Of a DNA stretch of 64,000 nt, positions 10,855-34,504 are shown in pieces. Position 1 is the stretch's first letter. Every line of letters starts with the position of its first letter. The notes under the pieces were generated by a model. That model worked only from the letters and a program-made list of their open reading frames with translations, did no database searches and was not told the DNA's origin. The stretch comes from Paenibacillus mucilaginosus 3016 (GTDB lineage: Bacteria; Bacillota; Bacilli; Paenibacillales; NBRC-103111). The stretch lies in assembly GCF_000250655.1 (NCBI RefSeq), contig NC_016935.1:3428001-3492000 (forward strand), in the 5' to 3' direction. A program made the position numbers and the translations under genes.

Positions 10855-10967
10855 GATTTGTATAAAAGCCGTAGAGTTTACGTGCCGCCTTTGAATCCGG
10901 ATTCCTTCCTTTAATCGATTGATTGGGAATCCGGATTCAACAGCGGCCGCAGGCATTTATACAAATC
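10855..10967. repeat. Nested-palindrome element, copy 1 (same family as 34392-34504)
   Basis: Outer arms GATTTGTATAAA (10855-10866) and TTTATACAAATC (10956-10967) are perfect. Inner arms TTGAATCCGGATTCC (10891-10905) and GGAATCCGGATTCAA (10926-10940) are perfect over 15 bases with a 20-base loop. Read on the minus strand, the inner stem is flanked by CCGCTG before TTGAA and AGGCGG after TTCAA, exactly as in the copy at 34.4 kb, while the stem sequences differ. No coding potential. The rest of 10747-11035 holds only T-rich sequence after gudB. Confidence 0.8.
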
Positions 10968-11035
10968 GGCCCGGCAGACAGTTCCTAAGAACGCTCATAT
11001 AACCAAAAACCAAAAACTGGATCGGAGGGGTCACC

Positions 11036-11734
11036 ATGAGCGTCTTACCCATCTTAACCGCGGCTATAGCGCCTGGTGCCGCTCTGCTGTGCTATTTTTA
11101 TCTCAAGGACCGTTATCAGCCGGAGCCGGTGTCTCTCGTGCTCCGGATGTTTTTCTTCGGCGTCCTGCTCGTCTTTCCCATCATGGTCCTGCAGCGGGCC
11201 CTGGTGCTCGGGCTGGGGCTAGGAGAAGGCTCCTTTCTGTTCTCCTTCCTGGCGTCCTCCCTGCCGGAGGAGTTCTTCAAGTGGTTCCTGGTCTACTTTA
11301 TCATCTACAAGCACACCTCGTTCGACGAACCGTATGACGGGATTGTGTATTCGGTGGCGGTGTCCCTTGGCTTCGCCACACTCGAGAACGTATTTTACGC
11401 CTTCCTGCACGGGTCCGACTTTTCCTTCCTGATGTGGAGGGCGTTCCTCCCGGTGTCGGGGCATGCGATGTTCGGCGTGATCATGGGCTATCACTTCGGC
11501 AAGGCGAAGTTCACCGCCGGGGGAGAGCGCAAGCACCTCCTTTACGCTCTGCTGCTGCCGTTCTTCTGGCACGGGACGTTCGATTACATTCTGGCCGTCA
11601 CGAAGACCTACTGGATCTGGTTCATGGTGCCGCTGATGGTGTTCCTGTGGGTGCGCAGCCTGCTTAAGGTGAACCGCGCCAACGCCAAGTCTCCGCTTCG
11701 GATGGTGACCCGGGAAGAACAGGTTAAAATCTGA
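11036..11734 (+). CDS. prsW: Intramembrane protease PrsW
   Basis: A 232-aa polytopic membrane protein of the PrsW family. In B. subtilis PrsW makes the first cut in the anti-sigma factor RsiW to release SigW. The family motifs are present: EEFFK (EExxK) near residue 78, GFATLENVFY with the conserved Glu-Asn near residue 115, and the His-containing SGHAMFG near residue 142. GGAGGGG at a good distance supports ATG 11036. Synteny (gudB-prsW-sleB/ypeB) matches Bacillus. An ECF sigma/anti-sigma pair lies at 48 kb and could be a substrate, which is only inference. Confidence 0.92.
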   Translation: MSVLPILTAAIAPGAALLCYFYLKDRYQPEPVSLVLRMFFFGVLLVFPIMVLQRALVLGLGLGEGSFLFSFLASSLPEEFFKWFLVYFIIYKHTSFDEPYDGIVYSVAVSLGFATLENVFYAFLHGSDFSFLMWRAFLPVSGHAMFGVIMGYHFGKAKFTAGGERKHLLYALLLPFFWHGTFDYILAVTKTYWIWFMVPLMVFLWVRSLLKVNRANAKSPLRMVTREEQVKI

Positions 11735-11785
11735 CGGAACCGTCTATACTGGGTAGCATAACCAGTAGAGAACCGGAGGATGGGC

Positions 11786-11950
11786 ATGACGGCAGTAACC
11801 ATGAGAGTGAAAGTCACGATCCGCTGCAAGCACTGCGGCGAGAAATTCGTCCTGAAAGGACGAAGGGAGAAGGGCCGCGTAGATACCGGCTTCAAAATGT
11901 GCATCTGCAACAACAATTCGGATTTTCATATCGAAACACATGATTTTTAA
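11786..11950 (+). CDS. Small zinc-ribbon-like protein (54 aa)
   Basis: A short gene encoding a 54-aa basic protein with two cysteine pairs, CKHC (residues 14-17) and CIC (39-41), spaced as in a zinc ribbon. The rest is rich in Lys and Arg (LKGRREKGR). GGAGG six bases before ATG 11786 decides the start over the ATG at 11780, which lies directly against GGAGG. A clean terminator follows at 11966. No family is recognised; a nucleic-acid or protein-binding role is plausible. Confidence 0.65.
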   Translation: MTAVTMRVKVTIRCKHCGEKFVLKGRREKGRVDTGFKMCICNNNSDFHIETHDF

Positions 11951-11967
11951 TAGGGGATGAAGAAGAA

Positions 11968-11995
11968 GCCGGCGAGATGCCGGTTTTTTTTGTTT
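11968..11995 (+). terminator. Intrinsic terminator after the 54-aa gene
   Basis: GCCGGC and GCCGGT can form a short stem around GAGAT, followed by eight T. Confidence 0.75.
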
Positions 11996-12119
11996 ACGGA
12001 CAGCCCTGCCGCTCCGTGTTCCCGCATCAGCCGCCAGAGGCTTTCTTTCCGTGCATAAACGCGCTCCCTTCCGGCGAACACTAAGCCCAACTTTTGCTGA
12101 TGAAGGGAGATCTTAAGTC

Positions 12120-13475
12120 ATGTACAAACGGCTCAGCATGGTCATGTTCCCGATTCTCCTCGTGGCGCTGGTGGGTACCGGGATCTGGGGATATATGGAG
12201 CACCAGGAGAAGAACTCCGTGCTCATCAAGGCGGAGAACCAGTACCAGCGGGCGTTCCACGACCTGAGCTTCCATGTGGACAAGCTTCATACGGAGCTCG
12301 GCAATACCCTGGCGGTGAATTCCACGTCGCAGGACGCTTACAAGAAGGGCCTCATCAATGTATGGCGGATCACCAGCCAGGCGCAGAACGAGATCTCGCA
12401 GCTGCCCTTGACGCTGCTTCCCTTCAACAAGACGGAAGAGTTCCTGGCGAATATCTCGAATTTCTCCTACCGGGCGGCCGTCCGTGACCTGAGCAAGCAG
12501 CCGCTCGACGAGAACGAGCTGAAGACGCTCTCGGCGCTGTACAAGCATGCGGGCGAGATTGCCGCCGACCTGCGGGGCGTTCAGTCGAAGGTGCTTGCGA
12601 GCAACCTGCGCTGGATGGATGTGGAGCTTGCGCTCGTCACCGAGAAGGAGCCGCAGGACAATGCGATTATCGACGGATTCTCGGCCATGGACCTGAAGGT
12701 CGGCGAGTATTCGGAGATCGACTGGAGTCCCGTGGTTATGAGCATGTACCAGAAGCGGGACATGACGATGCTGGCAGGCATGGAAGAGTCCCCCGAGGAC
12801 ATCAAGCAGAAGGCCGCGAGGTTCCTCAGACTCGCCGATACGTCCGGCGTGAAGGTCACCGAGAATGGAGCCGGCACGGACTACCAGTCCTACAGCGTCA
12901 GCGTGCCGAAGCCCGGTACGACGGACGGCGTGCTGATGGACTTCTCCAAAAAAGGCGGGCAGCTGCTATGGTTCTCGGCGGCGCGGGAGATTCCGGCGAA
13001 GCAGCTCGAGCTGCGGCAGGCCAGGGATATGGCGGCCCAGTTCCTCGATGATCACGGCTACAAGGACATGACGGCCGTTTCCTATGACGAGTACGGCAAT
13101 GAAGCGAATATTACGTTCGCCACCCGCAAGAACGACGTGATCAACTACCTCGAGAAGGTGGCGGTCAAGGTGGCGCTGGACAACGGGGAAGTGACGGGGC
13201 TCGAGGCCTCCGATTATGTGTTCGACAAGAAGGACCGGCAGCTCAGGCAGCCGAAGCTGTCGGAAGAGGAAGCGCGCAAGACGCTCAATCCGAGCTTTGA
13301 AGTGGAGAGCACATCGCAGGCCCTGATCCGCAGCGATATCCAGGAGGAGGTGCTGTGCTACCAGTTCATCGGACGGGTGAACGGCGGCATGTACCGCGTC
13401 TACATCAATGCGGAGAGCGGAGCTGAGGAGAAGATCGACGAGCTCGGCGCACAGGAGGCGGAGGTTCAGGCGTAA
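12120..13475 (+). CDS. ypeB: Germination protein YpeB
   Basis: A 451-aa sporulation protein (B. subtilis YpeB is 450 aa). It has one N-terminal membrane anchor (about residues 7-25), a helical domain, and C-terminal PepSY-like repeats. In Bacillus YpeB is needed for the cortex-lytic enzyme SleB to be stable in the spore inner membrane. Here no sleB lies directly upstream; the preceding genes are prsW and a 54-aa protein. AGGGAG is about 10 bases before ATG 12120. A terminator follows. Confidence 0.92.
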   Translation: MYKRLSMVMFPILLVALVGTGIWGYMEHQEKNSVLIKAENQYQRAFHDLSFHVDKLHTELGNTLAVNSTSQDAYKKGLINVWRITSQAQNEISQLPLTLLPFNKTEEFLANISNFSYRAAVRDLSKQPLDENELKTLSALYKHAGEIAADLRGVQSKVLASNLRWMDVELALVTEKEPQDNAIIDGFSAMDLKVGEYSEIDWSPVVMSMYQKRDMTMLAGMEESPEDIKQKAARFLRLADTSGVKVTENGAGTDYQSYSVSVPKPGTTDGVLMDFSKKGGQLLWFSAAREIPAKQLELRQARDMAAQFLDDHGYKDMTAVSYDEYGNEANITFATRKNDVINYLEKVAVKVALDNGEVTGLEASDYVFDKKDRQLRQPKLSEEEARKTLNPSFEVESTSQALIRSDIQEEVLCYQFIGRVNGGMYRVYINAESGAEEKIDELGAQEAEVQA

Positions 13476-13488
13476 GAAGCAGCAGACG

Positions 13489-13518
13489 GAGCCCGGCTTA
13501 GGTACGGGCTCTTTCATT
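13489..13518 (+). terminator. Intrinsic terminator after ypeB
   Basis: GAGCCCG and CGGGCTC pair around nine bases, followed by a T-rich tail (TTTCATTT). Confidence 0.65.
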
Positions 13519-13652
13519 TGAGGGGAGAGCCGCCGGTCTTTCCCTTCGGGATGAGCCTCTTCCCATATTTGGTCAGCATGCTATAATAGGGAATGGCGTG
13601 CGACAAGAAAGAGCTTGGGCCAGGGCTGCAGCCTAGAGAAAATCCCGGGGGG

Positions 13653-14312
13653 ATGACGTTGCTTCCGAAAGTGAATCAAATCCTGCATATCCAGATCGAA
13701 TCCATAGATGAAGAGGAAGCCAGGCAGGAATACAAGTCCCGCATAGCTGACGTGACCGATACGGAGATCATTATGGAAGTGCCGATCAACGAGAGTACGG
13801 GCCGCCTGAAGAAATTGTTCAAGGGCGACGGGCTGTCCGTGTATTTCATCGCGGAGGGCGGCGTCAAGAATTACTTCCATACCGAAGTGAGCGGCTTCCG
13901 CGACGATGTCATCCGGCTGGTCGCTATCCGCAAGCCCGAGCCGGAAGCCGTAACCCAGATCCAGCGGAGAAGCTATCTGCGGGTGCCTGCGGAGCTGGAG
14001 ATCGCCCTCCGGCTGCCGGACGGGGAGCGCCATGTCGCCTTGACCGACGATGTGAGCGGAGGAGGCTTGTCCCTGCTCTGCCCGCCGACGGTCCGGGCCG
14101 GCGAAGGGCAGTCGCTCGATTGCTGGCTCCTTCTTCACATGAAGAGCGGCACGCCGGAGCACATTCCGTTCAGCGCCGAGGTCGTACGGGTGAAGATGCA
14201 CGAGTCGGGCAAGCACCAGCTCATGCTGCGCTTCACTGAGATCTCGGACAAGGACCGCCAGAAGATCATCCGCTATTGTTTCGAGCGGCAGCTCGATATC
14301 CGCAAGAGATAG
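13653..14312 (+). CDS. PilZ-domain flagellar brake protein (YpfA/YcgR-like)
   Basis: A 219-aa cytoplasmic protein with an N-terminal YcgR-like barrel and a C-terminal PilZ domain. The cyclic-di-GMP binding residues are there: QRRSYLR (RxxxR) near residue 107 and DVSGGGLS (D/NxSxxG) near residue 134. B. subtilis YpfA (MotI), at the same genomic place, binds c-di-GMP and stops the flagellar motor via MotA. ATG 13653 directly follows a GGGGGG stretch with no gap, so the TTG at 13659 (gap 6) may be the true start. Cmk and YpfD follow, as in Bacillus. Confidence 0.87.
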   Translation: MTLLPKVNQILHIQIESIDEEEARQEYKSRIADVTDTEIIMEVPINESTGRLKKLFKGDGLSVYFIAEGGVKNYFHTEVSGFRDDVIRLVAIRKPEPEAVTQIQRRSYLRVPAELEIALRLPDGERHVALTDDVSGGGLSLLCPPTVRAGEGQSLDCWLLLHMKSGTPEHIPFSAEVVRVKMHESGKHQLMLRFTEISDKDRQKIIRYCFERQLDIRKR

Positions 14313-14373
14313 CGGATAGAACCGCAGCCTGCAGGGCACACTACCTTCCAAATTCAGGCTTGGGGTGAAGGTC

Positions 14374-14619
14374 ATGCAGGGAAAGGCTTGCGGCAGGCAG
14401 GAAAGAGAAGAGGCGGACGAATACGAAGAGCTGTTTTTGGGCGTTGCCGGACGGGTGGAGAAAATGGCGGTGGCCGTGCTGGTCGTGCTGCTGTCCCTGC
14501 TGCTTGCCTCCCAGCTGCTTTTGCAGAACCCAAGGATCCGCTACCTGCTGGTCCGCGTGGAGCAGCTGGAAGGAACGCCTTACGGCGAGCATGGGGCTTT
14601 AGTACGCAGCGGACCCTGA
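14374..14619 (+). CDS. Small membrane protein, YpfB-like (DUF5359-type)
   Basis: An 81-aa protein with a charged N-terminus (EREEADEYEE), one transmembrane segment (about residues 32-51, AVAVLVVLLSLLLASQLLL) and a C-terminal RVEQLEGTPYGE. Position between ypfA and cmk and the single-pass layout match YpfB of Bacillus. GGGGTG six bases upstream supports ATG 14374; a GTG at 14365 is in frame but lacks its own site. Function unknown. Confidence 0.65.
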   Translation: MQGKACGRQEREEADEYEELFLGVAGRVEKMAVAVLVVLLSLLLASQLLLQNPRIRYLLVRVEQLEGTPYGEHGALVRSGP

Positions 14620-14631
14620 CCCTTCGTCGTT

Positions 14632-14661
14632 TTGCATTCGGGTGGACAGCTATGGTATAAT
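14632..14661 (+). promoter_or_regulatory. Putative sigma-A promoter upstream of cmk
   Basis: TTGCAT (14632-14637), an 18-base spacer, then TATAAT (14656-14661), which lies in TATGGTATAAT with an extended -10 TGG. Transcription would start about 14668, only a few bases before a terminator-like hairpin. Confidence 0.6.
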
Positions 14662-14672
14662 TTTCTACGTTC

Positions 14673-14693
14673 AAGGCTTCGGCCTGTTTTTTT
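14673..14693 (+). terminator. Short terminator-like hairpin before cmk
   Basis: AAGGC, a TTCG loop and GCCTG, then seven T. It is either the end of the ypfB transcript or an attenuator just after the cmk promoter. Confidence 0.65.
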
Positions 14694-14835
14694 GTGATTC
14701 GGCAGGATTCGCACCCGCGGTCTTGGCTTCACCGGATCATTCCGGGCCGCCCTATGCCGCTGCCGCGATGGATGGGAGCGGAGCAATGCAGCTTCGGAAG
14801 TTTCGTCCGCTTTCAGGCAAGAAGGAGGCCGCATC

Positions 14836-15516
14836 TTGGAAAAGTTTAACATCGCTATCGACGGTCCGGCCGGAGCGGGCAAGAGCACCATCGCCCGTTT
14901 GGTGGCAGGGGCTCTCGGATTCGTGTATGTCGATACGGGGGCCATGTACCGTGCCGTCACCTGGAAGATTCTGCAGGAGAACCTTCCGGCGGAGGCCACG
15001 GCGGACATGATAGCACTGACAAGCCGGACGGAGATTCGTCTGGTGCCCGGCGAGAACGGGCAAACGGTTTATGTGGACGGGCTTGACGTCACCGGCATGA
15101 TTCGATCGGCCGAAGTGACGGGGAACGTCTCACGAATCGCATCCGTCGCGGAGATCCGTTCCATTCTGACCGCGAAGCAGAAGGAGATGGCCGCCGGCAA
15201 GGGTGTGGTCATGGACGGCCGGGATATCGGCAGCCATGTGCTCCCGGACGCGGAGGTCAAGATCTTCCTGACCGCCTCGGTTAGAATCCGCGCAGAGCGG
15301 AGGTTCAAGGAGATCTGCGATACCCAGACGGAGATGACGCTCGAACAGCTCGAGCTGGACATCGCCCGCCGGGACCGGATGGACGAACAGCGGGAAGCCT
15401 CGCCACTCGTCAAAGCGGCGGACGCCGTTTTGATGGACACAACCGATATGACGATCCCCGAAGTGGTGGAGCGGATATTGGAGCTTTGCCAGTCCAGAGT
15501 CGGTGGAGGGAAATAA
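14836..15516 (+). CDS. cmk: Cytidylate kinase
   Basis: A 226-aa (d)CMP kinase that makes (d)CDP from (d)CMP and ATP in the cytoplasm. The P-loop is GPAGAGKST (residues 9-17). The CMP-binding region DTGAMYRAVTWK and the DGRDIGSHVLP block with catalytic residues follow. The length is typical of the long bacterial form. The start is TTG: AAGGAGG lies seven bases before it and no ATG fits. plsC begins 3 bases after the stop, and rpsA follows, the same order as in Bacillus. Confidence 0.95.
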   Translation: MEKFNIAIDGPAGAGKSTIARLVAGALGFVYVDTGAMYRAVTWKILQENLPAEATADMIALTSRTEIRLVPGENGQTVYVDGLDVTGMIRSAEVTGNVSRIASVAEIRSILTAKQKEMAAGKGVVMDGRDIGSHVLPDAEVKIFLTASVRIRAERRFKEICDTQTEMTLEQLELDIARRDRMDEQREASPLVKAADAVLMDTTDMTIPEVVERILELCQSRVGGGK

Positions 15517-15519
15517 ATC

Positions 15520-16104
15520 ATGCTGTATCGGTTTTTTCGGAGTCTCTTTCGGGTAATATTCCGTATCCTCTTCCGGCTTCGCGCCGAAGGGATGGAGAAC
15601 ATTCCCCGTACGGGACCGGTCATCTTGTGCGCGAACCATACGAGCAACGGGGATCCTCCGCTGCTTGGATGTCTGATGGAGCGCAAGGTGCACTATATGG
15701 CGAAGGCAGAGCTTTTTGAAATGCCTGTACTCAGCTACATTCTTCCCCGAATCGCGGCTTTTCCCGTCAAGCGCGGCGGTGTAAGCAAAGAATCGATCCG
15801 GTTGTCCCTGGATCTGCTCAAGGAAGGCAGCGTGCTCGGGATCTTTCCTGAAGGAACCCGCAGCAATGCTGGCGGCATGGGCAAGAAAGGGGCGGCAAGC
15901 CTCGCCATAAAGTCGGGAGCTACGGTGATCCCTGCGGCGATCGTCGGCGGCTACAAGCTGTTCCGGCCGATGAAAGTGGTCTACGGGCCGCCGGTGGATC
16001 TCAGCGAATTCGCGGGTAGCGGCTCCGAAGGCTTGGAGCAAGCGACGGAGAAGATCATGAATACCATCCGCGCGATGGTGAAACAGCACGAATCGAAAAG
16101 ATAA
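15520..16104 (+). CDS. plsC: 1-acyl-sn-glycerol-3-phosphate acyltransferase
   Basis: A 194-aa acyltransferase that adds the second acyl chain to lysophosphatidic acid to make phosphatidic acid at the membrane. Motif I NHTSNGDPPLL (the HX4D motif with one extra Gly context) lies near residue 38, motif III FPEGTRS near residue 109, and the N-terminus is basic/hydrophobic for membrane association. It starts 3 bases after cmk and is likely in one operon with it. plsY and gpsA, also for phospholipid synthesis, lie 6 kb downstream. Confidence 0.92.
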   Translation: MLYRFFRSLFRVIFRILFRLRAEGMENIPRTGPVILCANHTSNGDPPLLGCLMERKVHYMAKAELFEMPVLSYILPRIAAFPVKRGGVSKESIRLSLDLLKEGSVLGIFPEGTRSNAGGMGKKGAASLAIKSGATVIPAAIVGGYKLFRPMKVVYGPPVDLSEFAGSGSEGLEQATEKIMNTIRAMVKQHESKR

Positions 16105-16186
16105 ACCGTGGAATACTTAGGAAAAAGATGAAAGCTAGCTTTTATCCAAATACATTGTCGTCAGGTTGCTAAGGAGGGTATTGAAC

Positions 16187-17431
16187 ATGTCAGAAGAAAT
16201 TAAAGACCAGGAAGTTCAAGAAGTGCAGGGTGCCGAGGTATCCCAGGAAGAGTCCATGGCGGACGTAACCTTCATCAAGAAGGGCGACATCGTCAAAGGG
16301 AAAGTCATCAAGGTGGATGCGGACCAGGCGTTTGTTGACGTAGGTTACAAATATGACGGCGTTGTTCCTGTGAAGGAGCTTTCCTCCGTGCAAGTGGACG
16401 ATGCTTCCCAGAACGTGGAGATCGGCCAAGAAATCGAGCTCAAGGTCCTCACGATCGACGATCACAGAGAGAAGCTCGTTCTCTCCAAGCGTGCCGTTGA
16501 CGGCGAGAAGTCTTGGGACAAGCTCGCTGCCGACATGGAGAACAAAACGATCCTCGAAGCGAAGGTTGCCGAAGTGGTTAAGGGCGGTCTCGTTGTTGAC
16601 GTAGGCCTGCGCGGTTTCGTTCCGGCTTCGATGGTTGAGCGTACATTCGTTGAAGATTTCAGCGATTACAAAGGCCGCACACTTCGTCTTCGCGTGAAAG
16701 AAATGGACCGCGAAAAGAACAAGGTCATCCTTTCCCAGAAGGATGTTCTCGACGAGGAGTTCGAAGGCAAGAAGAAGGAAGTACTCGCGAAGCTGTCCGT
16801 CGGCCAGGTGCTCGATGGTACGGTTCAGCGTCTGACCCAGTTCGGCGCATTCGTGGATATCGGCGGCGTGGACGGCCTCGTGCACATCTCCGAGATGGCA
16901 TGGCACCATGTTGAGAAGCCGTCCGAAGTCGTGAAAGAAGGCGACAAGGTACAGGTGCAGGTGCTGAAGGTAGATCCGGAGAACGAGCGCATCTCCCTGT
17001 CCATCAAGGCTACCCAGCCGGGTCCTTGGCAGCAGGTGGCGGGCCGCATCAACACCGGTGACATCGTAACCGGTACAGTGAAGCGTCTTGTGCAGTTCGG
17101 TGCCTTCATCGAAGTGGCTCCTGGCGTAGAAGGTCTGGTACATATCTCCCAGATCGCTCACCGTCACGTAGCAACTCCGCAGGAAGTGCTCAAAGAAGGG
17201 GAAGAAGTCAAGGTGAAAGTGCTTGACATGAACCCGGACGAGAAGCGTATCTCCCTCTCCATTAAGGAAACGGAAGAAGCTCCAGCCCGCGAACCAAGAC
17301 AAGAGCGCGAGCGCGGTGACCGTGAGAGAGCTCCAAGAAGAGAGAGAGAATCCGTCTCCCACGAAGAGCTGTCTTCCCTGAACCTGACCCTCGGCGAGCG
17401 CTTCGGCGACAAGCTGAGCAAGTTCAAGTAA
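16187..17431 (+). CDS. rpsA: S1-domain RNA-binding protein (30S ribosomal protein S1 homologue, YpfD)
   Basis: A 414-aa protein with four S1 repeats: starting near residues 23 (GDIVKGKVIKVD), 110, 193 (GQVLDGTVQRL) and 278 (GDIVTGTVKRL), each with the GxFV and GLVHxS pattern in the last two. A charged tail of alternating Arg and Glu (about residues 370-392) follows. Firmicute S1 homologues have four rather than the six repeats of proteobacterial S1, so this length is normal. AAGGAGG before ATG 16187 decides the start. Follows plsC as in B. subtilis. A role in translation is presumed, but in Bacillus it is not essential. Confidence 0.92.
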   Translation: MSEEIKDQEVQEVQGAEVSQEESMADVTFIKKGDIVKGKVIKVDADQAFVDVGYKYDGVVPVKELSSVQVDDASQNVEIGQEIELKVLTIDDHREKLVLSKRAVDGEKSWDKLAADMENKTILEAKVAEVVKGGLVVDVGLRGFVPASMVERTFVEDFSDYKGRTLRLRVKEMDREKNKVILSQKDVLDEEFEGKKKEVLAKLSVGQVLDGTVQRLTQFGAFVDIGGVDGLVHISEMAWHHVEKPSEVVKEGDKVQVQVLKVDPENERISLSIKATQPGPWQQVAGRINTGDIVTGTVKRLVQFGAFIEVAPGVEGLVHISQIAHRHVATPQEVLKEGEEVKVKVLDMNPDEKRISLSIKETEEAPAREPRQERERGDRERAPRRERESVSHEELSSLNLTLGERFGDKLSKFK

Positions 17432-17486
17432 GATGGCCGCCCGGCTTAGGCCGGCTGTCCAAGTATAACGAAAAGAGGAACCCAGG

Positions 17487-18563: not shown

Positions 18564-18664
18564 CTAAAACTAAATATGGAAAGCCATACTACGGAAGTGA
18601 GATCACGGCTGCCTATCCTGAATACGGATAGGGAGTCGAAGCTTGTTTCTGCGGGTGAGAGCGA

Positions 18665-19290: not shown

Positions 19291-19315
19291 GGCCCAAGAA
19301 CAGAGGAGGTTCGTC

Positions 19316-20230: not shown

Positions 20231-20231
20231 C

Positions 20232-20411
20232 ATGGGCAAGATTCTTGCGGTGATTACGATGGATAAGAGCAAGGTGGCCGGCGGGGCGCCGATCTTCGTG
20301 ACGGCCAGTCCGGAAGAGCAGCAGCAGGTCGCCTTCAAGCTGGAGAAGATCATGGATGCCTCCGCCCATGACCTGCAGAACGGGACGCTGATTATCGTGA
20401 AGCACGGGTAA
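20232..20411 (+). CDS. Small partner protein of the YIEGIA-family protein
   Basis: A 59-aa soluble protein (MGKILAVITMDKSK...) starting one base after the YIEGIA gene. No membrane segment or cysteine. Such a short protein regularly follows YIEGIA genes and is thought to cap or complete that complex; this is from general knowledge of the pair, not from a motif I can point to. Translational coupling is likely. Confidence 0.75.
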   Translation: MGKILAVITMDKSKVAGGAPIFVTASPEEQQQVAFKLEKIMDASAHDLQNGTLIIVKHG

Positions 20412-26524: not shown

Positions 26525-26548
26525 CATATTGATGCCATGCCCAAGAGC

Positions 26549-26579
26549 TCTATCATCCCTGTGGATGATAGAGTTTTTT
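26549..26579 (+). terminator. Intrinsic terminator after the yphF-like gene
   Basis: A perfect stem CTCTATCATCC/GGATGATAGAG with loop CTGT is followed by seven T. Confidence 0.9.
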
Positions 26580-26726
26580 TCTTATTTAGGGGATGAGTCC
26601 GAATAACCGGGGATTCCCGCTCATATATTTGTTTGGGATGAGTCAAGGGTGTCTTGGACGAAGTAGCGCAGCAGCCTTGGGCGGAGAGAAGATATTTGTG
26701 CCCGCCGGCATCATAAAACGCGGTGT

Positions 26727-26734
26727 CATACATA
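26727..26734 (+). promoter_or_regulatory. Possible sigma-E -10 element of spoIVA
   Basis: CATACATA matches the sigma-E -10 consensus well, as expected for a mother-cell gene. I could not find a convincing -35 at the right distance (best ATCATAAA just upstream), so this is weak. Confidence 0.35.
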
Positions 26735-26797
26735 TATTTGTACTAGTCCAAAGCATGTACGAGTTTCGTCTTAAACAACCTGTAGGAGGGATTCTCA

Positions 26798-28276: not shown

Positions 28277-28341
28277 GTTCCGGGCTTCGACAAAGAGAGA
28301 TAGATTCGAACAATTTCTGTCACAAAAAGAGACTTTCCTGC

Positions 28342-28371
28342 AAAAATGCACTCCACCGGGTGCATTTTTTT
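28342..28371 (+). terminator. Intrinsic terminator after spoIVA
   Basis: AAAAATGCAC and GTGCATTTTTTT form an A/T-flanked stem with loop TCCACCGG. Confidence 0.9.
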
Positions 28372-28513
28372 GCGTTCTTACTTGAAAAAGCGTTAGTCCT
28401 GTATTACTATAATCTTGATTTGACTGGCGAAAACCCTGATTCCATGTATATTTTTCGGTGAAACAGCCAACAAAGGAAATAACAGGATATTTCTAGCAGG
28501 GGAGGTGAATTCC

Positions 28514-28786
28514 ATGAATAAATCCGATTTGATCAACAAGGTGTCCGAATCCACCGAACTGTCCAAGAAAGACGCTACCAAAGCGGTAGAGGCGGTATTC
28601 GAAGCCATCTCCGAAGCGCTGCAGAGCGGGGACAAGGTTCAGCTGGTCGGCTTCGGCAACTTCGAAGTTCGTGAGCGTTCCGCCCGCAAAGGCCGCAACC
28701 CGCAAACCGGCGAAGAGATCGAGATCCCTTCGAGCAAGATTCCTGCTTTCAAGCCTGGCAAGGCGCTGAAGGACGGCATCCAGTAA
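28514..28786 (+). CDS. hup: DNA-binding protein HU
   Basis: A 90-aa nucleoid protein, the standard HU length. [12 protein letters not shown] start, [21 protein letters not shown] with the DNA-bending beta-arm (residues about 46-75) and [11 protein letters not shown] end are canonical. GGGGAGGTG seven bases before ATG 28514 decides the start. Single gene between two terminators. Confidence 0.97.
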
Positions 28787-28840
28787 GAGAAGCACTTCAT
28801 CTACATAAGAGCTTCGGCTCCCAATAGATCGTAAGCACAG

Positions 28841-28875
28841 AAACACCCGGACCCTGCAGGGACCGGGTGTTTTTA
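28841..28875 (+). terminator. Intrinsic terminator after hup
   Basis: AAACACCCGG(T/A)CCCTGCAGGGACCGGGTGT-type stem: ACACCCGG pairs CCGGGTGT with an inner CCCTGCAGGG palindrome, followed by five T. Confidence 0.88.
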
Positions 28876-28934
28876 TCATTCCGTATGACGAAGGGCAGGG
28901 TGGAAAACATTAGGCGAAAAATATGCCGAATCTA

Positions 28935-28963
28935 TTGCAGGTGAGATAGGCGCGTGCTATAAT
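28935..28963 (+). promoter_or_regulatory. Sigma-A promoter of tRNA-Pro
   Basis: TTGCAG (28935-28940), spacer 17, TATAAT (28958-28963) with extended -10 (TGCTATAAT). Starts near 28970, about 70 bases before the tRNA. Confidence 0.75.
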
Positions 28964-29042
28964 GAATTTCGCCGAGTGAAAGCGTACCATATACATAATC
29001 TTTACATGAATCGCCTTCTTGGTATGCAGGCGAGGCACGATT

Positions 29043-29119
29043 CGGGGTATGGCGCAGTCTGGTAGCGCGCACCCTTGGGGTGGGTGAGGCCGTGGGTTCG
29101 AATCCCGCTACTCCGACCA
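29043..29119 (+). tRNA. tRNA-Pro (anticodon GGG), CCA encoded
   Basis: A full cloverleaf can be drawn. Acceptor CGGGGTA/TACTCCG; D stem GCGC/GCGC; anticodon stem CACCC/GGGTG with loop TTGGGGT, giving anticodon GGG at 29077-29079; T stem GTGGG/CCCGC with loop TTCGAAT; discriminator A and encoded CCA. It reads CCC and CCU. It has its own promoter and terminator, alone between hup and mtrB. Confidence 0.95.
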
Positions 29120-29123
29120 TGAA

Positions 29124-29157
29124 AGAGACACCGTCAATGCCGGTGTCTCTTTTCTTT
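29124..29157 (+). terminator. Intrinsic terminator after tRNA-Pro
   Basis: A perfect 10-bp stem AGAGACACCG/CGGTGTCTCT with a 7-base loop, then TTTCTTT. Confidence 0.85.
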
Positions 29158-29194
29158 ATCCGCCGCGTACAGCCCCAGAGTCCAGCGGGTCCGG

Positions 29195-29223
29195 TTGACA
29201 CGGCTTGGTTTTTTTTGCATGAT
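29195..29223 (+). promoter_or_regulatory. Putative promoter of mtrB
   Basis: TTGACA (29195-29200), spacer 17, CATGAT (29218-29223); perfect -35, moderate -10. Confidence 0.5.
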
Positions 29224-29261
29224 GAAGAGGAATTGGATATGAGAACGGAGGAGCTTAAGCG

Positions 29262-29483
29262 ATGGAAGGGAACCAGAACGATTATATTGTCATCAAGGCG
29301 AAGGAGAACGGGGTCCAGGTCATCGGACTGACCCGGGGGCAGGATACCCGCTTCCATCACACGGAGAAGCTGGACAAGGGCGAAGTGATGATCTGCCAGT
29401 TCACCGAGCATACCTCGGCCATCAAGATCCGCGGCAAAGCTTCGGTGATGACGAAGGTCGGCACGGTGGATACGCAGGAATAA
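29262..29483 (+). CDS. mtrB: trp RNA-binding attenuation protein (TRAP)
   Basis: A 73-aa subunit of the 11-mer ring TRAP, which binds tryptophan and then wraps NAG-repeat RNA to cause termination or block translation of trp genes. The sequence [20 protein letters not shown] start and the RNA-contact stretch KLDKGEV...[14 protein letters not shown], with the conserved Lys and the KIRG Lys-Arg pair, are clear. GGAGGAG supports ATG 29262. Unlike B. subtilis, no folE (mtrA) precedes it; it seems monocistronic. Its expected target, an 11-triplet leader, is at 39.07 kb of this window. Confidence 0.95.
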
Positions 29484-29497
29484 TTTTTCGGAAGAGT

Positions 29498-29519
29498 GCA
29501 GGCATAGCCTGCTTTTTTT
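29498..29519 (+). terminator. Intrinsic terminator after mtrB
   Basis: GCAGGC/GCCTGC with a 3-base loop, then seven T. Confidence 0.88.
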
Positions 29520-29603
29520 CGTTGTACAATGATAAGGACAGGGTCATCTCGAGAGCGCAGCCGCAGATTGCCCAAACCGGTCAAGGAAGGAAGCGTGCCA
29601 GGA

Positions 29604-30119
29604 ATGAAATGGGCTCCCCGTGTCTTTATCATGACGGCCGTCTCGGTGGCCGTAGCCATTCTGCTGTCCTATGTATCCAAGCTGGACGATTCGGCCCTGG
29701 TGTTCCGCCAGGCGAGGCCGGTGACGGAAGCGACCATCGTCGATGTCGTCTCGGGCATGAAGCTGCACCTGCGCATCCGCCGCGTGGAAGTCAGCCATGC
29801 AATCGTATCCATTGATCTGCTTGCCTCCAAATCCACAGCCAAGGCGGACATGCTCCAAGATTTGTACGAAATTCCGAGCGTCCTGTTCGGGGCGTCGACC
29901 AATATCAATCAAGTGCTCGTCCGCGTACTGGACGGATCGCAGGATAAGGAAGGAACGCCGGGACCCCTCATCGCCACCGACGCGAGAAGGGAGAAGTGGC
30001 TGCCGAACGAACCGAAGCTGCATCCGATGAGCGCGGAAGAGATTCAAACGTATCTCGAAACGCATTACCGGACCACGTATACCCCCAAGTGGCAGCAGCG
30101 CGACAAGCAGAAAAGCTGA
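29604..30119 (+). CDS. Membrane-anchored hypothetical protein
   Basis: A 171-aa protein I do not recognise. One N-terminal membrane segment (about residues 7-23, IMTAVSVAVAILLSYVS) anchors a soluble domain with predicted beta-rich start (VVSGMKLHLRIRRVEV) and a basic tail. ATG 29604 is chosen; a GTG at 29595 closer to AAGGAAGG is an alternative. Its position just before the hep operon could suggest a link to envelope or quinone metabolism, but there is no motif to support that. Confidence 0.6.
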   Translation: MKWAPRVFIMTAVSVAVAILLSYVSKLDDSALVFRQARPVTEATIVDVVSGMKLHLRIRRVEVSHAIVSIDLLASKSTAKADMLQDLYEIPSVLFGASTNINQVLVRVLDGSQDKEGTPGPLIATDARREKWLPNEPKLHPMSAEEIQTYLETHYRTTYTPKWQQRDKQKS

Positions 30120-30149
30120 GGGTAAAACAATGCGAAACGAATCCTGTTG

Positions 30150-30158
30150 TGCTATAAT
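30150..30158 (+). promoter_or_regulatory. Extended -10 promoter element upstream of hepS
   Basis: TGCTATAAT is a perfect extended -10; the -35 region is not recognisable. It lies 50 bases before hepS. Confidence 0.45.
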
Positions 30159-30207
30159 AGTTTGGATTGGAGAACAGAGATTTGTGTAACGGTTCGGAGG
30201 CTTACAT

Positions 30208-31071
30208 ATGACCACTTATCGGATTCCGGAGATCGCCCAAAGATACTTGGCTTACGACATGATCCAGAAGCATACGGACCTGCCGCTGTTCCCTGACTAC
30301 CGAACCCGGCTGCTGTATGCTTTTCTCAATAATCACAGTGTTCTGGCCGGGTACAGCGAGCTGTATTCCCTGGTCACGTCGCTCGTGCAGGTCGGGCTCG
30401 ATACGCATGACGGGGTCAGCGTAAACAGCGATATCAAGGAGCAGAAAGCGGCAAGGTCCCGGCAGCTGAAAGTGCTGGCGGGAGATTATTTCTCTTCTCG
30501 CTTCTACCACCTGCTGGCCCAGGCGGGCCGCATCGACCTGGTCGGGGTGCTGTCGGAGGCGATCTGTGAAGCGAACCGGCTCAAAATGAACTTGTATCTT
30601 GCGATGAAGGGGGCCGGGCTGACCGCGGAAGAGTACCTCCGGCAGACCGTCAATGTGAAGGCGGAGCTGTACCTTTCGTTCGGCAGGCTCCTCGAGGAGA
30701 AGGCCGGTACCGTATGGAGCCTGCTCCTGAGGCTGATCACCCGCTGTGAGGTGCTCCTTCAAGAGATTCAGCGCTCCGAATCGTCCCAGCACTACCGGGA
30801 TAGCTGGGGCTTTTGGCATGTGCGGCAGTTCGGCTCGAAGGAAGAGCAGACGCTGCTCCGCCAGGAGGAACCGGATGGATCCAAGCTGCGGGCCGTCTGG
30901 CTGAAGCACAAGGTGACTTCCCAGCTCTACGGGCAGCTCGAAGCTTGCATGAAGGATGTGCATGCGGCGGTTCAGGGACTGGAGTCCGAAGCATTGAGGC
31001 AGGAATTGCTGTCGATCGGCGAGCCGATCCGGCGGTATTTGTCCGCTCCGCGGGCCACGCAGGAAGTGTAG
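30208..31071 (+). CDS. hepS: Heptaprenyl diphosphate synthase component 1
   Basis: A 287-aa HepS-like regulatory subunit. With HepT it makes heptaprenyl (C35) diphosphate, the side chain of menaquinone-7. The family block RQLKVLAGDYFSSRFYHLLA (residues about 90-109) is present in full, and no DDxxD catalytic motif is found, as expected for component 1. GGAGG before ATG 30208. Followed by menG, then ubiA/ubiX genes and hepT. Confidence 0.9.
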   Translation: MTTYRIPEIAQRYLAYDMIQKHTDLPLFPDYRTRLLYAFLNNHSVLAGYSELYSLVTSLVQVGLDTHDGVSVNSDIKEQKAARSRQLKVLAGDYFSSRFYHLLAQAGRIDLVGVLSEAICEANRLKMNLYLAMKGAGLTAEEYLRQTVNVKAELYLSFGRLLEEKAGTVWSLLLRLITRCEVLLQEIQRSESSQHYRDSWGFWHVRQFGSKEEQTLLRQEEPDGSKLRAVWLKHKVTSQLYGQLEACMKDVHAAVQGLESEALRQELLSIGEPIRRYLSAPRATQEV

Positions 31072-31085
31072 GGGGACAAGAGAGC

Positions 31086-31844
31086 ATGCAGAGCACATCA
31101 GGGAACCAACCCAAAGGAAAATCCAAAGAGCAGTTCGTTCATTCCGTATTCGAGAGCATCGCACCGAAGTACGATCTGATGAACGACATTCTGAGCTTCC
31201 GCAGGCACAAGGCCTGGAGGAACTTCACGATGAAGAAAATGAACGTCCGGCCCGGCAGTACCGCGATCGACATCTGCTGCGGGACATGCGACTGGACGAT
31301 CTCCCTTGCGGAAGCTTCCGGCACCGGAGCGATGATCGGGCTGGACTTCTCGCAGAACATGCTGGATGTGGGAGCGGATAAGATCGAACGGCTGGGCCGG
31401 GACAAGCAGATTCGTCTGGTCCGCGGCAACGCGATGGAGCTGCCCTTCGAGGACAATACCTTCGATTATGCGACGATCGGCTTCGCCCTGCGGAATGTGC
31501 CCGATCTCGTGAAAGTGATCGAAGAGATGCAGCGCGTCGTGAAGCCCGGCGGCCTGGTGGTTTCTCTGGAGCTCTCCAAGCCGACCTGGCAGCCGTTCAA
31601 AGGCATTTATTATTTCTATTTTCAGCGGGTGCTGCCGATGATCGGCAAGCTGGTGGCGAAGAGCTACGAGCAGTACAAGTGGCTGCCGGAGTCGCTGGTT
31701 CATTTTCCGGACCACAAGCAGCTGGCGGAGATCTTCCGTAACACGGGGCTGAGCGGGGTAGAAGCTTATCCGCTCACCGGCGGAATTGCAGCCCTGCATA
31801 TCGGCCGCAAGCCGGCATCGACCACAGCAGCCAAGGGAGACTGA
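31086..31844 (+). CDS. menG: Demethylmenaquinone methyltransferase
   Basis: A 252-aa SAM-dependent methyltransferase (UbiE/MenG family) that methylates demethylmenaquinone in the last step of menaquinone synthesis. Motifs: VFESIAPKYDLMNDILSF near residue 21, the SAM motif DICCGTCDWT (usually DxCCGTGD) near residue 59, NAMELPFEDNTFD, and FALRNV. GGGGACAAG upstream gives a fair ribosome site for ATG 31086. Between hepS and ubiA in a run of quinone genes. Confidence 0.93.
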   Translation: MQSTSGNQPKGKSKEQFVHSVFESIAPKYDLMNDILSFRRHKAWRNFTMKKMNVRPGSTAIDICCGTCDWTISLAEASGTGAMIGLDFSQNMLDVGADKIERLGRDKQIRLVRGNAMELPFEDNTFDYATIGFALRNVPDLVKVIEEMQRVVKPGGLVVSLELSKPTWQPFKGIYYFYFQRVLPMIGKLVAKSYEQYKWLPESLVHFPDHKQLAEIFRNTGLSGVEAYPLTGGIAALHIGRKPASTTAAKGD

Positions 31845-31848
31845 CGTT

Positions 31849-32721
31849 ATGTGGAGAAAGACCAAGATTTTCATGGAAATGATCAAGATCGAACACACCT
31901 TGTTCGCTCTGCCGTTCGCCTTCATGGGCGCGCTGCTCGGGTCGGTGGTGGTGTACGGTCACCTGCCCTCCTGGGCCACGATCGGATGGATTCTGCTCGC
32001 CATGGTGGGAGCGCGCAGCGCGGCCATGGGGCTGAACCGGGTGATTGACAAGGTGTTCGATGCCAAGAACCCCCGTACGGCCATGCGTGCGATCCCGGCC
32101 GGACTGATTTCTTCCAAAGAAGCCATCCTCTTTATTTTGATCTCGTTTTTGCTCTTATTTTATGCGGCGTTTCATTTAAGTCCGCTGGCCGTGAAACTTC
32201 TTCCGGTGGCCGTGTTTTTTCTGGTATTCTATTCCTATACCAAACGCTTCACCTGGGCCTGCCATCTGGTGCTGGGCATGACGGTGGCGCTGGCGCCGCT
32301 GGGAGGCTGGGTGGCCGTTACGGGCGAGTTTTCTCTTCCGGCCCTGGTGTTTTATGTGGCGATCGTCTTCTGGCTGGCCGGCTTTGATATCATCTACGCC
32401 TGCCAGGATGCGGAATTCGACCGCGAGGAAGGACTGCATTCGATTCCGAGCCGCTTCGGGATTCCGAAGGCGCTGAAGATGGCACGCTGGTTTCATATCA
32501 TTACGGCAATCGGCCTTATCTCTCTTTATTTCCTTACGGAGCTGACTTGGGTATATCTTCTTGGTATCATCGTATCTTATGCGCTGCTGATGTATGAGCA
32601 TTTTATCGTCAAACCGGACGATCTCAGCCGGGTCAATACCGCCTTCTTCACCATGAACAGCACCCTGAGCATCGCGGTCTTCGCTTTTACCTTGATCGAT
32701 CTGGTGGTGCACACGGGATGA
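31849..32721 (+). CDS. UbiA-family polyprenyltransferase (MqnP-like)
   Basis: A 290-aa integral membrane prenyltransferase with about eight hydrophobic helices. The two Asp-rich motifs are NRVIDKVFDAKNPRT (NxxxDxxxD, residues about 63-77) and DAEFDREEG (DxxxD, residues about 187-195). It would attach the heptaprenyl chain to an aromatic ring. UbiA/UbiX pairs in Firmicutes fit the futalosine menaquinone pathway (MqnP); classical MenA is possible but less likely given ubiX. Its stop overlaps the ubiX start. Substrate choice is inference. Confidence 0.85.
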   Translation: MWRKTKIFMEMIKIEHTLFALPFAFMGALLGSVVVYGHLPSWATIGWILLAMVGARSAAMGLNRVIDKVFDAKNPRTAMRAIPAGLISSKEAILFILISFLLLFYAAFHLSPLAVKLLPVAVFFLVFYSYTKRFTWACHLVLGMTVALAPLGGWVAVTGEFSLPALVFYVAIVFWLAGFDIIYACQDAEFDREEGLHSIPSRFGIPKALKMARWFHIITAIGLISLYFLTELTWVYLLGIIVSYALLMYEHFIVKPDDLSRVNTAFFTMNSTLSIAVFAFTLIDLVVHTG

Positions 32722-33320
32722 GCAGGCCTTGGGTCGTCGGCATTACGGGAGCCAGCGGAGCGGCCTACGGAGTCAGACTGTGCCGCTTCCTGCTGGAAGC
32801 CGGAGAGGATATTCATCTGGTGGTCACCGATGCGGGCTGGCGCGTCCTGAAGGAAGAGCTCGGCTGGGATGTCAGCCGCCGGAAGGAGACCCTGGAAGAG
32901 CAGTTTGCTCCGGGTCAGACAACGGGGCGCCTGGAGTATGTGCCCAACCAGGATATCGGCGCCAAGACAGCCAGCGGCTCGTTTCGAACCCAGGGCATGG
33001 TCGTCGTTCCCTGCTCGATGGGCACCCTCTCCGGTATTGCCCACGGCGCGTCGGACAATCTCCTGGAGCGGACGGCGGACGTCATGCTCAAGGAGGGGCG
33101 GAAGCTGATTCTGGTACCCCGCGAAACGCCGCTTCATGCGATCCATCTCGAGAATATGCTCAAGCTGGCAAGGCTGGGCGTGCGCATCATTCCGGCTATG
33201 CCCGCATTCTATCAAGGACCCCAGACGGTCGATGATTTGATCGATTTTATGGTGGGTAAAATTTTGGATTGCATGGAAATCGATCATGAGCTCTACCGGA
33301 GATGGGGGTCGCCTCAATAG
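32718..33320 (+). CDS. ubiX: Flavin prenyltransferase UbiX
   Basis: A 200-aa enzyme that makes prenyl-FMN from FMN and dimethylallyl phosphate, the cofactor of UbiD-type decarboxylases. N-terminal GITGASGAAYG (FMN/phosphate binding), VVPCSMGTLSGIAHGASDNLLERTADV and ETPLHAIHLENML are diagnostic. Its ATG overlaps the ubiA-like stop (ATGA). No ubiD lies next to it in this window, so the partner decarboxylase must be elsewhere. Confidence 0.93.
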   Translation: MSRPWVVGITGASGAAYGVRLCRFLLEAGEDIHLVVTDAGWRVLKEELGWDVSRRKETLEEQFAPGQTTGRLEYVPNQDIGAKTASGSFRTQGMVVVPCSMGTLSGIAHGASDNLLERTADVMLKEGRKLILVPRETPLHAIHLENMLKLARLGVRIIPAMPAFYQGPQTVDDLIDFMVGKILDCMEIDHELYRRWGSPQ

Positions 33321-33378
33321 GGGAACGGCCGGCGTGACGGCTTCGGATCGAACGATAAAACACAGTACGGGTGACGGA

Positions 33379-34353
33379 ATGAAACTGCTCGAATTATATG
33401 CAAAAATGAAAAAGGATATCAGCTACATTGAGAAGGAGCTGGAGCGCAGTATCGATGTCGACCATCCGATGCTGCGGGAAGCCTCCCTGCATCTTCTCAA
33501 GGCGGGCGGTAAGCGGATACGTCCTGTCTTCGTCCTGCTGGGGGCGAAGTTCGGCACGTATGATCTGGCGAAGATCAAGCACGTCGCCGTTCCGCTGGAG
33601 CTGATCCATATGGCGTCGCTCGTGCACGACGATGTGATCGACGATGCCAATACCCGGCGCGGGCAGCTTACCGTCCGCTCCAAGTGGGACAACCGGATCG
33701 CGATGTATACCGGCGACTACATCTTTGCGAAGGCGCTGAGCATCGTGACCAAGCTCCCCGACCCGGCCATTCACCAGGTGATGTCCAAGGCGCTGGTGGA
33801 GATGAGCATCGGGGAGATGGAGCAGATCCGGTTCTTCTTCCACGCCGAGCAGAGCGTTAGAGACTATCTTCTGCGGATCAAGCGGAAGACGGCCCTGCTG
33901 CTCGCCGTCTCCTGTCAGCTGGGCGCGATGGCGGCGGGGGCCGCCGAGCGTGATGCCCGGAGGCTGTACAACTTCGGCTACTATGCCGGCATGGCGTTCC
34001 AGATCCGGGACGATCTCCTGGATATCTGCGGTACCGAGAAGGAGATCGGCAAGCCGCCCGGCAGCGACATCAAGCAGGGGAACATTACGATCCCCGTGAT
34101 CTTTGCCCTGCGGAATCCGGCGCTCCGGCCGTACCTGCTGGATGAGCTGGCCCGCATCGAGGCTTGTGACGGACAAACCGATGTCCGTGGTTTTCTGGAT
34201 ATCATCCGCGGCAGCACCGGCATCGCCGAGGCCGAGCGGATGGCTTCGACCTACATAGACAAGGCAATCCGAGTTCTGGAAGGACTGCCCGACATCCAAG
34301 CGAAGAAGGATTTGGTGAGCTTTGCTCATTTCGTGGGGAATCGCTCTTATTGA
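33379..34353 (+). CDS. hepT: Heptaprenyl diphosphate synthase component 2
   Basis: A 324-aa trans-prenyltransferase, the catalytic subunit that with HepS makes C35 diphosphate. First Asp-rich motif HDDVIDDANTRRG near residue 83, second motif QIRDDLLD near residue 211, and GGKRIRP near residue 43. ATG 33379 starts the conserved MKLLELYAKMKKDI; the ribosome site (GGGTGACGG) is modest. End of the quinone gene run; a nested-palindrome element follows before ndk. Confidence 0.94.
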   Translation: MKLLELYAKMKKDISYIEKELERSIDVDHPMLREASLHLLKAGGKRIRPVFVLLGAKFGTYDLAKIKHVAVPLELIHMASLVHDDVIDDANTRRGQLTVRSKWDNRIAMYTGDYIFAKALSIVTKLPDPAIHQVMSKALVEMSIGEMEQIRFFFHAEQSVRDYLLRIKRKTALLLAVSCQLGAMAAGAAERDARRLYNFGYYAGMAFQIRDDLLDICGTEKEIGKPPGSDIKQGNITIPVIFALRNPALRPYLLDELARIEACDGQTDVRGFLDIIRGSTGIAEAERMASTYIDKAIRVLEGLPDIQAKKDLVSFAHFVGNRSY

Positions 34354-34391
34354 GGAGAGATGTGGTATGTTCCTCGTACGAGACCGCTTCC

Positions 34392-34504
34392 GGGACAAAT
34401 GGCTGTTCCACCGCTGTTGAACTCCCGTTTCTTCATTAGAATTTGGGGAAGGGGAAACGGGAGTTCAAAGGCGGCCGCTAACGCTTTCCACATCCATTTG
34501 TCCC
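34392..34504. repeat. Nested-palindrome element, copy 2 (same family as 10855-10967)
   Basis: Outer arms GGGACAAATGG (34392-34402) and CCATTTGTCCC (34494-34504) are perfect. Inner arms TTGAACTCCCGTTTC (34417-34431) and GAAACGGGAGTTCAA (34454-34468) are perfect over 15 bases around a 22-base loop. The junctions CCGCTG|TTGAA and TTCAA|AGGCGG are identical to those of copy 1 (read on its minus strand), and CCGC/GCGG can extend the inner stem. Total length is 113 bases, as in copy 1. No coding potential. Confidence 0.8.

What the first reader, a model, noticed from the sequence alone, without database searches (positions are those of the whole stretch)
10855..34504. Two nested-palindrome elements with covarying stems and conserved junctions
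Copies at 10855-10967 (minus-oriented) and 34392-34504 are both 113 bases long. Both have a perfect outer inverted repeat, a perfect 15-bp inner stem and a 20-22 base loop. The first five inner bases (TTGAA/TTCAA) and the flanks (CCGCTG before, AGGCGG after) are the same in both. The other ten inner stem pairs and the whole outer stem differ, but pairing is kept in each. That is the pattern of selection on structure, not on sequence. I do not recognise it. It may be a structured RNA, a REP/MITE-like mobile unit, or a nucleoid or replication-related DNA site. Both copies are intergenic, one after gudB and one after hepT.
Basis: partly seen in the sequence, partly recalled or inferred. Interest (0 to 1): 0.72.

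Follow-up and report, generated by a model that had tools for sequence, protein, structure and literature searches.

The report
Mobile nested DNA hairpins in Paenibacillus
The two odd palindromes belong to a large family of small mobile DNA hairpins spread through Paenibacillus and its relatives; they keep their folded shape while the letters of their stems change almost freely, and the evidence suggests that the shape is kept in DNA rather than in RNA.

Summary
Observation confirmed: the two copies are the window's only perfect inverted repeats with arms of 14 or more. A covariance model finds 18 strong full-length copies in the host genome and matches in 45 of 60 genomes, host included. Stems differ while pairing and unpaired junctions are kept. 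A structured RNA is unlikely: non-Watson-Crick stem cells split 68 G-T to 90 A-C, against 146 to 3 in 6S RNA of the same genomes. Young subfamilies are MITE-like: about 200 bp, end motif shared with an IS1182-type relic, beside terminator-like hairpins that are duplicated whole (24 of 33 places above the 99% control), as pathway b of a published IS1272 model predicts. One genome has the same core inside at least four end types, and IS1182 presence does not follow the elements. Window copies are old residents: the same sites in relatives hold copies with other paired stems, a broken copy, or nothing. Stem arms mostly change on both sides together (205 two-sided, 32 one-sided changes at 92% or more flank identity). 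Best reading: non-autonomous mobile DNA hairpins. The core's function is unknown.

The parts
10855..10967 (-). copy 1, core of the nested hairpin (middle stem, junctions, inner stem, loop)
   Evidence: R1 match 91.1 bits in the own genome; sequence
10855..10870 (.). copy 1, middle stem, one arm (GATTTGTATAAA-A-GCC)
   Evidence: read directly; pairs counted
10952..10967 (.). copy 1, middle stem, other arm (GGC-A-TTTATACAAATC)
   Evidence: read directly
10871..10884 (-). copy 1, conserved 3' internal loop (CACGTAAACTCTAC on the minus strand)
   Evidence: shared with other copies
10891..10940 (-). copy 1, inner 15-bp perfect stem and 20-base loop
10813..10834 (.). copy 1, outermost stem, left arm (imperfect)
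   Evidence: RNAfold with flanks; relative G016 has nearly the same middle stem without this long outer stem
10988..11011 (.). copy 1, outermost stem, right arm (imperfect)
34392..34504 (+). copy 2, core of the nested hairpin
   Evidence: R1 match 86.8 bits; sequence
34392..34402 (.). copy 2, middle stem, left arm (GGGACAAATGG, continued by TGT at 34404-34406)
34490..34504 (.). copy 2, middle stem, right arm (ACA-T-CCATTTGTCCC)
34417..34468 (+). copy 2, inner 15-bp perfect stem and 22-base loop
34475..34489 (+). copy 2, 3' internal loop (CCGCTAACGCTTTCC)
34346..34359 (.). copy 2, outermost stem, left arm (CTTATTGAGGAGAG); includes the hepT stop codon
34538..34550 (.). copy 2, outermost stem, right arm (CTCTCCCAATAAG), an imperfect inverted copy of the hepT 3' end

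Best explanation
The two palindromes are old resident copies of a large family of non-autonomous, MITE-like mobile DNA elements of Paenibacillus and relatives. Each unit is a nested hairpin: a core (middle and inner stems with conserved, unpaired, asymmetric junctions) inside an outer stem formed by terminal inverted repeats. Shown: dispersal, shared core, terminal repeats and duplicated target hairpins in young subfamilies, and pairing that follows DNA rules (Watson-Crick, no strand bias). Inferred: young copies of subfamilies A and D are moved in trans by a stem-loop-targeting transposase of the IS1182 kind, whose ends join at the 5' feet of a terminator-like hairpin so that repair duplicates the whole hairpin. 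Inferred more weakly: stems stay complementary because one arm can template the other during replication or repair (template switching), so arms mostly change together, while the unpaired junctions are held by selection on some recognition of the folded core.
For: 18 strong full-length copies in the own genome; matches in 45 of 60 genomes, own included. 16 of 20 G003 copies fetched from the best-scoring matches are near-identical and bounded by GTTGAGAAACC / GGTTTCTCAAC. Pattern GNNTGTTGAGAAA: 132 places in G003 against 1 for the reversed control. An IS1182-type relic in G003 (two pieces of 253 and 188 bits, below the curated cut-off of 270) and fragments in G003, G004, G005 and G024 carry this end motif, several next to hairpins. 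Flank repeats above the 99% control at 24 of 33 places, 20 above all 1056 control pairs; 21 of the 24 repeats hold a stem of 5 or more (stricter first version 11 of 18). Whole stem-loop duplication is pathway b of the IS1272 model (PMC5678879; abstract, passages, Discussion part 1). G-T 68 / A-C 90 in 129 distinct copies against 146 / 3 in 30 6S RNAs. Orientation to the co-directional neighbours differs: copy 1 antisense, copy 2 sense. Mostly two-sided arm changes at one locus. Both window sites empty in other relatives.
Against: IS1182 matches (E at most 1e-10) do not follow the elements: none in element-rich G051, G058, G045, G015 and G026, and 9 of the 15 genomes without elements do have IS1182 matches; 36 of 45 element-bearing genomes have them. 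G051 nevertheless has a subfamily with similar ends and duplicated hairpins. 23 of 30 fetched IS1182 loci were searched and hold no core. The end motif gives 4 hits in the own genome against 1 for the control, and by eye the own copies do not carry the ends of the own IS1182 group read; the ends of a second own group were not read. 9 of 33 places show no flank repeat above the 99% control, four of which (L143 three times, L190) are probably false pairings of ends. Old copies keep junctions across deep divergence, which parasitism alone does not explain. Concerted change is not general: L145/L184 have 6 one-sided and 1 two-sided change. Template switching alone does not give arms unrelated to the old ones.
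Confidence: 0.62

Rival explanations
1. A structured regulatory or processing RNA: the hairpin is transcribed between genes and its fold is selected in RNA.
For: Covariation is very strong. Many copies of the GGCACGTAAACTCT type lie close upstream of a start codon, antisense to the gene: so in the 20 loci picked, among them prsW and, named by family search, spoIIGA, hrcA, the yabQ locus, phoH, tpiA, purM, disA and polC.
Against: No G-U excess on either strand (68 G-T, 90 A-C; 6S control 146 to 3; the control's fold came from RNAalifold, which itself favours G-U, so the contrast is somewhat inflated). Other copies with CGTAAAC lie the other way, downstream of a gene in the same sense (L018, L025, L050, L055, L060). 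At spoIIGA the element lies upstream of what look like the 0A boxes and promoter (box names recalled). No Rfam match at gathering score.
Confidence: 0.07
2. A folded single-stranded DNA recombination or transposition site of the attC or REP/HUH kind: an enzyme reads unpaired bases and the shape, so stem letters are free.
For: Stems free and nearly strictly Watson-Crick, unpaired junctions conserved in sequence and side; one core inside different terminal repeats; 13 of 18 copies run against the replication fork, not significant.
Against: Young units have terminal repeats and duplicated target hairpins, features of DDE transposition. No tyrosine or HUH transposase was searched for.
Confidence: 0.17
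3. A host-useful DNA hairpin (insulator, nucleoid or supercoil site) at gene borders, kept for the host and spread by chance.
For: Persistence at hepT-ndk in the own genome and 10 relatives with quite different stems; elements before polC in the own genome, G004, G009 and L147, with the junction subtype shared by the first three but not by L147; mostly intergenic positions.
Against: The same sites are empty or decayed in many relatives; copy number runs from 0 to 62 or more among related genomes; young copies look like transposition products.
Confidence: 0.14

Closest known systems
[quoted passage not shown]
   Same: Short (about 200 bp in young subfamilies), no gene, terminal inverted repeats, target duplication, end motif shared with an IS relic in the same genome.
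   Different: The core was not found in the IS1182 loci searched; the same core sits inside several different terminal repeats; stems are nearly free in sequence but stay paired; the duplication is a whole hairpin of 16-33 bp.
IS1182 family / IS1272 stem-loop-targeting transposition
   Same: Targets are hairpins of differing sequence; a duplicated whole stem-loop is pathway b, and own-genome IS1182 copies with a repeated loop look like pathway c, of the model in PMC5678879.
   Different: That paper reports replacement without duplication for its new IS1272 copies; the elements here code for nothing, and some element-rich genomes have no IS1182 match.
REP / BIME / REPIN elements with RAYT transposases
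   Same: Many dispersed extragenic palindromes, sometimes in convergent pairs.
   Different: Longer, nested, with terminal repeats and target duplication; stems not conserved in sequence. REP features are recalled or from abstracts in search listings (PMC3733652, PMC2817692).
Integron attC sites
   Same: Free stem sequence with conserved unpaired positions (recalled comparison).
   Different: Scattered single copies, other motif; integrase and cassettes not searched.

Membership tests
MITE | short, non-coding, repeated, dispersed | tested here: met
MITE | terminal inverted repeats | tested here: met
   young subfamilies A and D and those of G051; not demonstrated for the window copies
MITE | target duplication | tested here: met
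   24 of 33 places above the 99% control
MITE | ends of a partner IS | tested here: inconclusive
   end motif shared with an IS1182-type relic below the curated cut-off in G003; no partner found for other end types
IS1182-family derivative | interior derived from the IS | tested here: not met
   R1 finds no core in 23 of 30 fetched IS1182 loci searched
IS1182-family derivative | hairpin as target | tested here: met
   21 of 24 duplicated repeats hold a stem of 5 or more
Structured RNA | G-U tolerated on the transcribed strand | tested here: not met
   68 G-T to 90 A-C; 6S control 146 to 3
Structured RNA | match to a known family | tested here: not met
   none at gathering score at either copy; only chance-level matches at copy 1
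REP/RAYT | tag such as GTAG or CGTC at a 20-40 bp palindrome with a RAYT gene | not tested
   RAYT genes not searched; the size already differs
attC | IntI-type integrase and cassette array | not tested
   copies are scattered; integrase not searched

The most novel reading that the evidence does not exclude
The core is an independent, structure-read DNA module: a hairpin with conserved unpaired junctions that different transposon end types have repeatedly acquired, and whose arms are renewed in concert, so that stems diversify faster than flanking genes with little loss of complementarity.
Probability: 0.33. Interest if true: 0.82.

Novelty: new variant of a known kind. Interest (0 to 1): 0.62.

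Why it matters
It bears on two open matters. First, strong covariation is usually read as a sign of a functional RNA; here it seems to arise at DNA level, and counting G-T against A-C on a fixed strand tells the cases apart. Second, it gives many natural insertions in which a whole target hairpin is duplicated, a pathway that the one paper read here drew as a possibility for IS1182-type transposition. It also offers a large set of orthologous palindromes in which concerted arm change can be measured.

Tried and rejected
RNA reading: disfavoured by the strand test. Riboswitch-like leader for the GGCACGTAAACTCT type: rejected because the downstream genes are unrelated in function and the element lies upstream of the apparent promoter at spoIIGA. 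Pseudoknot between loop and 3' internal loop: looked at by eye, inconsistent, dropped. IS1182 as general mobiliser: not supported by genome counts. Phage or plasmid carriage: no match of one subfamily A element in 50,697 phage and 72,556 plasmid records and no exact match of one core pattern in viral contigs. Replication orientation: 5 of 18 co-directional, p = 0.10, not used. Arm replacement by ordinary recombination between lineages is not excluded; at yabP, loop sequence and arm type do not go together, which speaks against one simple import. An earlier count said that yabP stems are either identical or differ at 7 pairs; the table is less clean (see the Full report section), and the report follows the table. 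Papers: listings; none describes this family in what I saw there. Seen beyond listings: PMC5678879 (abstract, passages, Discussion part 1 of 2) and PMC8794818 (abstract and the start of the introduction).
Full report
OBSERVATION. Both copies are as described. In the 64 kb window they are the only perfect inverted repeats with arms of at least 14 and a loop of 3-40; 8 Markov controls had none. Flanking genes by Pfam: glutamate dehydrogenase and PrsW around copy 1, polyprenyl synthetase and nucleoside diphosphate kinase around copy 2. The exact frame CCGCTGTTGAA-N-TTCAAAGGCGG occurs 6 times in the genome, the reversed control 0 times. RNAfold with 95 bases of flank shows further outer pairing in each of the six copies.

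FAMILY. A padded alignment of the six exact-frame copies gives 96.6% of 208 cells paired, 63 two-sided changes and 1 one-sided standard change; slid controls give 33-50% paired. Model R1 (119 positions) finds 27 matches in the own genome at E up to 10; 18 are full-length, of distinct places and below 1e-7, two are weaker full-length ones, and seven are reverse-strand echoes of the palindromes. In 60 genomes (own included) 45 have a match at E up to 0.01, with 1 to 62 matches each, echoes included; only 62 candidates per genome were scored, so high counts are lower bounds. An exact search for one core stretch in a named collection returned 62 loci, all labelled Paenibacillus.

ANATOMY. Three nested stems. 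Nearly constant: the pairs next to the inner stem (CT-G/C-TT opposite AAAGG), a short 5' internal loop (TCCA, TCCGG, TGCGG or TTCGG) and a longer 3' internal loop (CGTAAACTCTCC or CGCTA-CGCTCC type). Most else in the stems varies, even the CCGCT/GGCGG neck in some copies.

DNA RATHER THAN RNA. If the fold were selected in RNA, mismatches should be G-U on the transcribed strand. From 203 alignment rows I dropped those under 100 nt, overlapping reverse-strand hits and identical sequences; the 129 distinct copies left have, in the stem pairs outside the neck, 3310 Watson-Crick, 68 G-T, 90 A-C and 205 other cells. Positive control: 6S RNA, a long hairpin RNA, from 30 of the 40 genomes searched (all 40 matched; 30 loci were returned): over 33 variable pairs of 56, 706 Watson-Crick, 146 G-T, 3 A-C and 36 other cells. 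The 6S fold came from RNAalifold, which favours G-U, and cells are not independent, but the contrast is large. Against their co-directional neighbours copy 1 is antisense and copy 2 sense.

YOUNG SUBFAMILIES MOVE. A systematic test took every held locus with both end motifs and a core: 33 non-redundant places, of which 24 exceed the 99th percentile of mismatched-flank controls and 20 exceed the maximum of 1056; the 24 repeats are 16-33 bp, 21 contain a stem of 5 or more, and they mostly start 4-6 bases outside the end motif (a stricter first version gave 11 of 18). Nine places do not pass, including three rows of L143 and one of L190 that are probably false pairings of ends. An IS1182-type relic (G003:C13, two pieces, below the curated cut-off) and fragments elsewhere carry the same end motif, several next to hairpins. 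Wan et al. 2017 (PMC5678879) propose that IS1272, an IS1182-family member, reads targets by structure, that attack at the 5' feet of a stem-loop would duplicate it (pathway b) and attack at the loop would duplicate the loop (pathway c). The young elements fit pathway b; the seven own-genome IS1182 copies of one group that I read split hairpins, with short repeats of the loop.

LIMITS OF THE IS1182 LINK. IS1182 matches at 1e-10 occur in 36 of 45 genomes with elements and in 9 of 15 without; element-rich G051, G058, G045, G015 and G026 have none. In G051 the core sits, by eye, inside at least four end types: (1) GACGAGAAACCC with duplicated hairpins, (2) GAGCGTGTTCAAAAA, (3) GTCTGTCCGACGA, (4) GGCTGTCCCAAAAGTC. 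So the core is not tied to one transposon. R1 found no core in the 23 of 30 IS1182 loci searched.

WINDOW COPIES ARE OLD RESIDENTS. At hepT-ndk ten relatives (G001, G003, G004, G005, G007, G009, G013, G015, G019, G024) hold a full-length element (61-68 bits); G016, the closest by flanks, has only a broken copy; nine others read (G008, G010, G011, G012, G014, G017, G018, G021, G022) have none. In the eight sequences read the outer, middle and inner stems differ from those of the window, pair by eye, and share its TCCA junction. The outer right arm is an inverted copy of the hepT end and follows its stop codon: TTATTGAGGAGAG with CTCTCCCAATAAG here, TTATTAGGAG with CTCCTAATAA there. At gudB-prsW G016 and G014 are occupied (65 and 64 bits; G014 with other stems); eight others read have no match, seven of them with only 7-86 bases between the flanks and G022 with an unrelated 427-base stretch. 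At ftsZ-spoIIGA 9 of 30 loci match R1; read by eye, full, interrupted, relic and empty states occur.

ARMS MOSTLY CHANGE TOGETHER. At yabP, L174 and L169 share 96.7% of their flanks, yet 7 of 16 middle-stem pairs differ on both sides and none on one side; within an arm type stems differ by 0-2 changes, between two types by 7 two-sided and 0-1 one-sided, and a third type (L185) by 3-5 two-sided and 0-1 one-sided. Over the 76 same-locus pairs with at least 92% flank identity there are 205 two-sided, 32 one-sided and 26 other changes; between 80 and 92% 71, 25 and 10 (17 pairs); below 80% 161, 45 and 10 (24 pairs); pairs are not independent. Some loci go against the rule: L145/L184 have 1 two-sided and 6 one-sided, L179/L196 3 and 4, L159/L172 5 and 4. 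Template switching at hairpins can give multi-base compensatory changes (PMC8794818, abstract), which would also keep pairing Watson-Crick without strand bias; it does not by itself explain wholly new arms, nor why the unpaired junctions persist.

VERDICT. A family of MITE-like nested DNA hairpins, not found in the searches listed; known in kind, unusual in three respects: covariation that looks DNA-level, one core in several end types, and whole-hairpin target duplication. The function of the core is open.

Noticed in passing
window 2649-2893 (-): T-box leader, 96.9 bits, just above its gathering score of 93.
   Followed up: no
L109, L116, L123, L128, L132, L135, L137 (own genome): IS1182 copies with ends GAGGCCACTGAAAAAGTCC lying inside hairpins, with short repeats of the loop.
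   Followed up: partly
L369, L371-L374 (G051) and L209, L227: A second small hairpin repeat (AGTTTTC..GAAAACTGC..TCGG..AGC..AAGCT) sits inside the 3' internal loop of the element in distant genomes (by eye).
   Followed up: no
L385, L386 (G003): Another hairpin (CCCCGCAAAGT..ACTTTGCGGGG) inserted at the base of the inner stem of a subfamily D element; two such composites in one genome.
   Followed up: no
L375 (G058:C1:1620900-1622300): Three copies in tandem, same orientation, 263 bp apart, with flanks included in the repeat.
   Followed up: no
L079, L089, L101, L102, L048: Convergent pairs of elements of different subfamilies about 100-180 bp apart.
   Followed up: no
L232 (G016, hepT-ndk): Broken copy in which the 5' side seems to run into the reverse complement of the 3' side, as a template switch within the hairpin would leave it (by eye).
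   Followed up: partly
L387 (G003:C11:36400-37300): Two elements of different subfamilies side by side, with copies of the same hairpin on the outside and between them (by eye).
   Followed up: no
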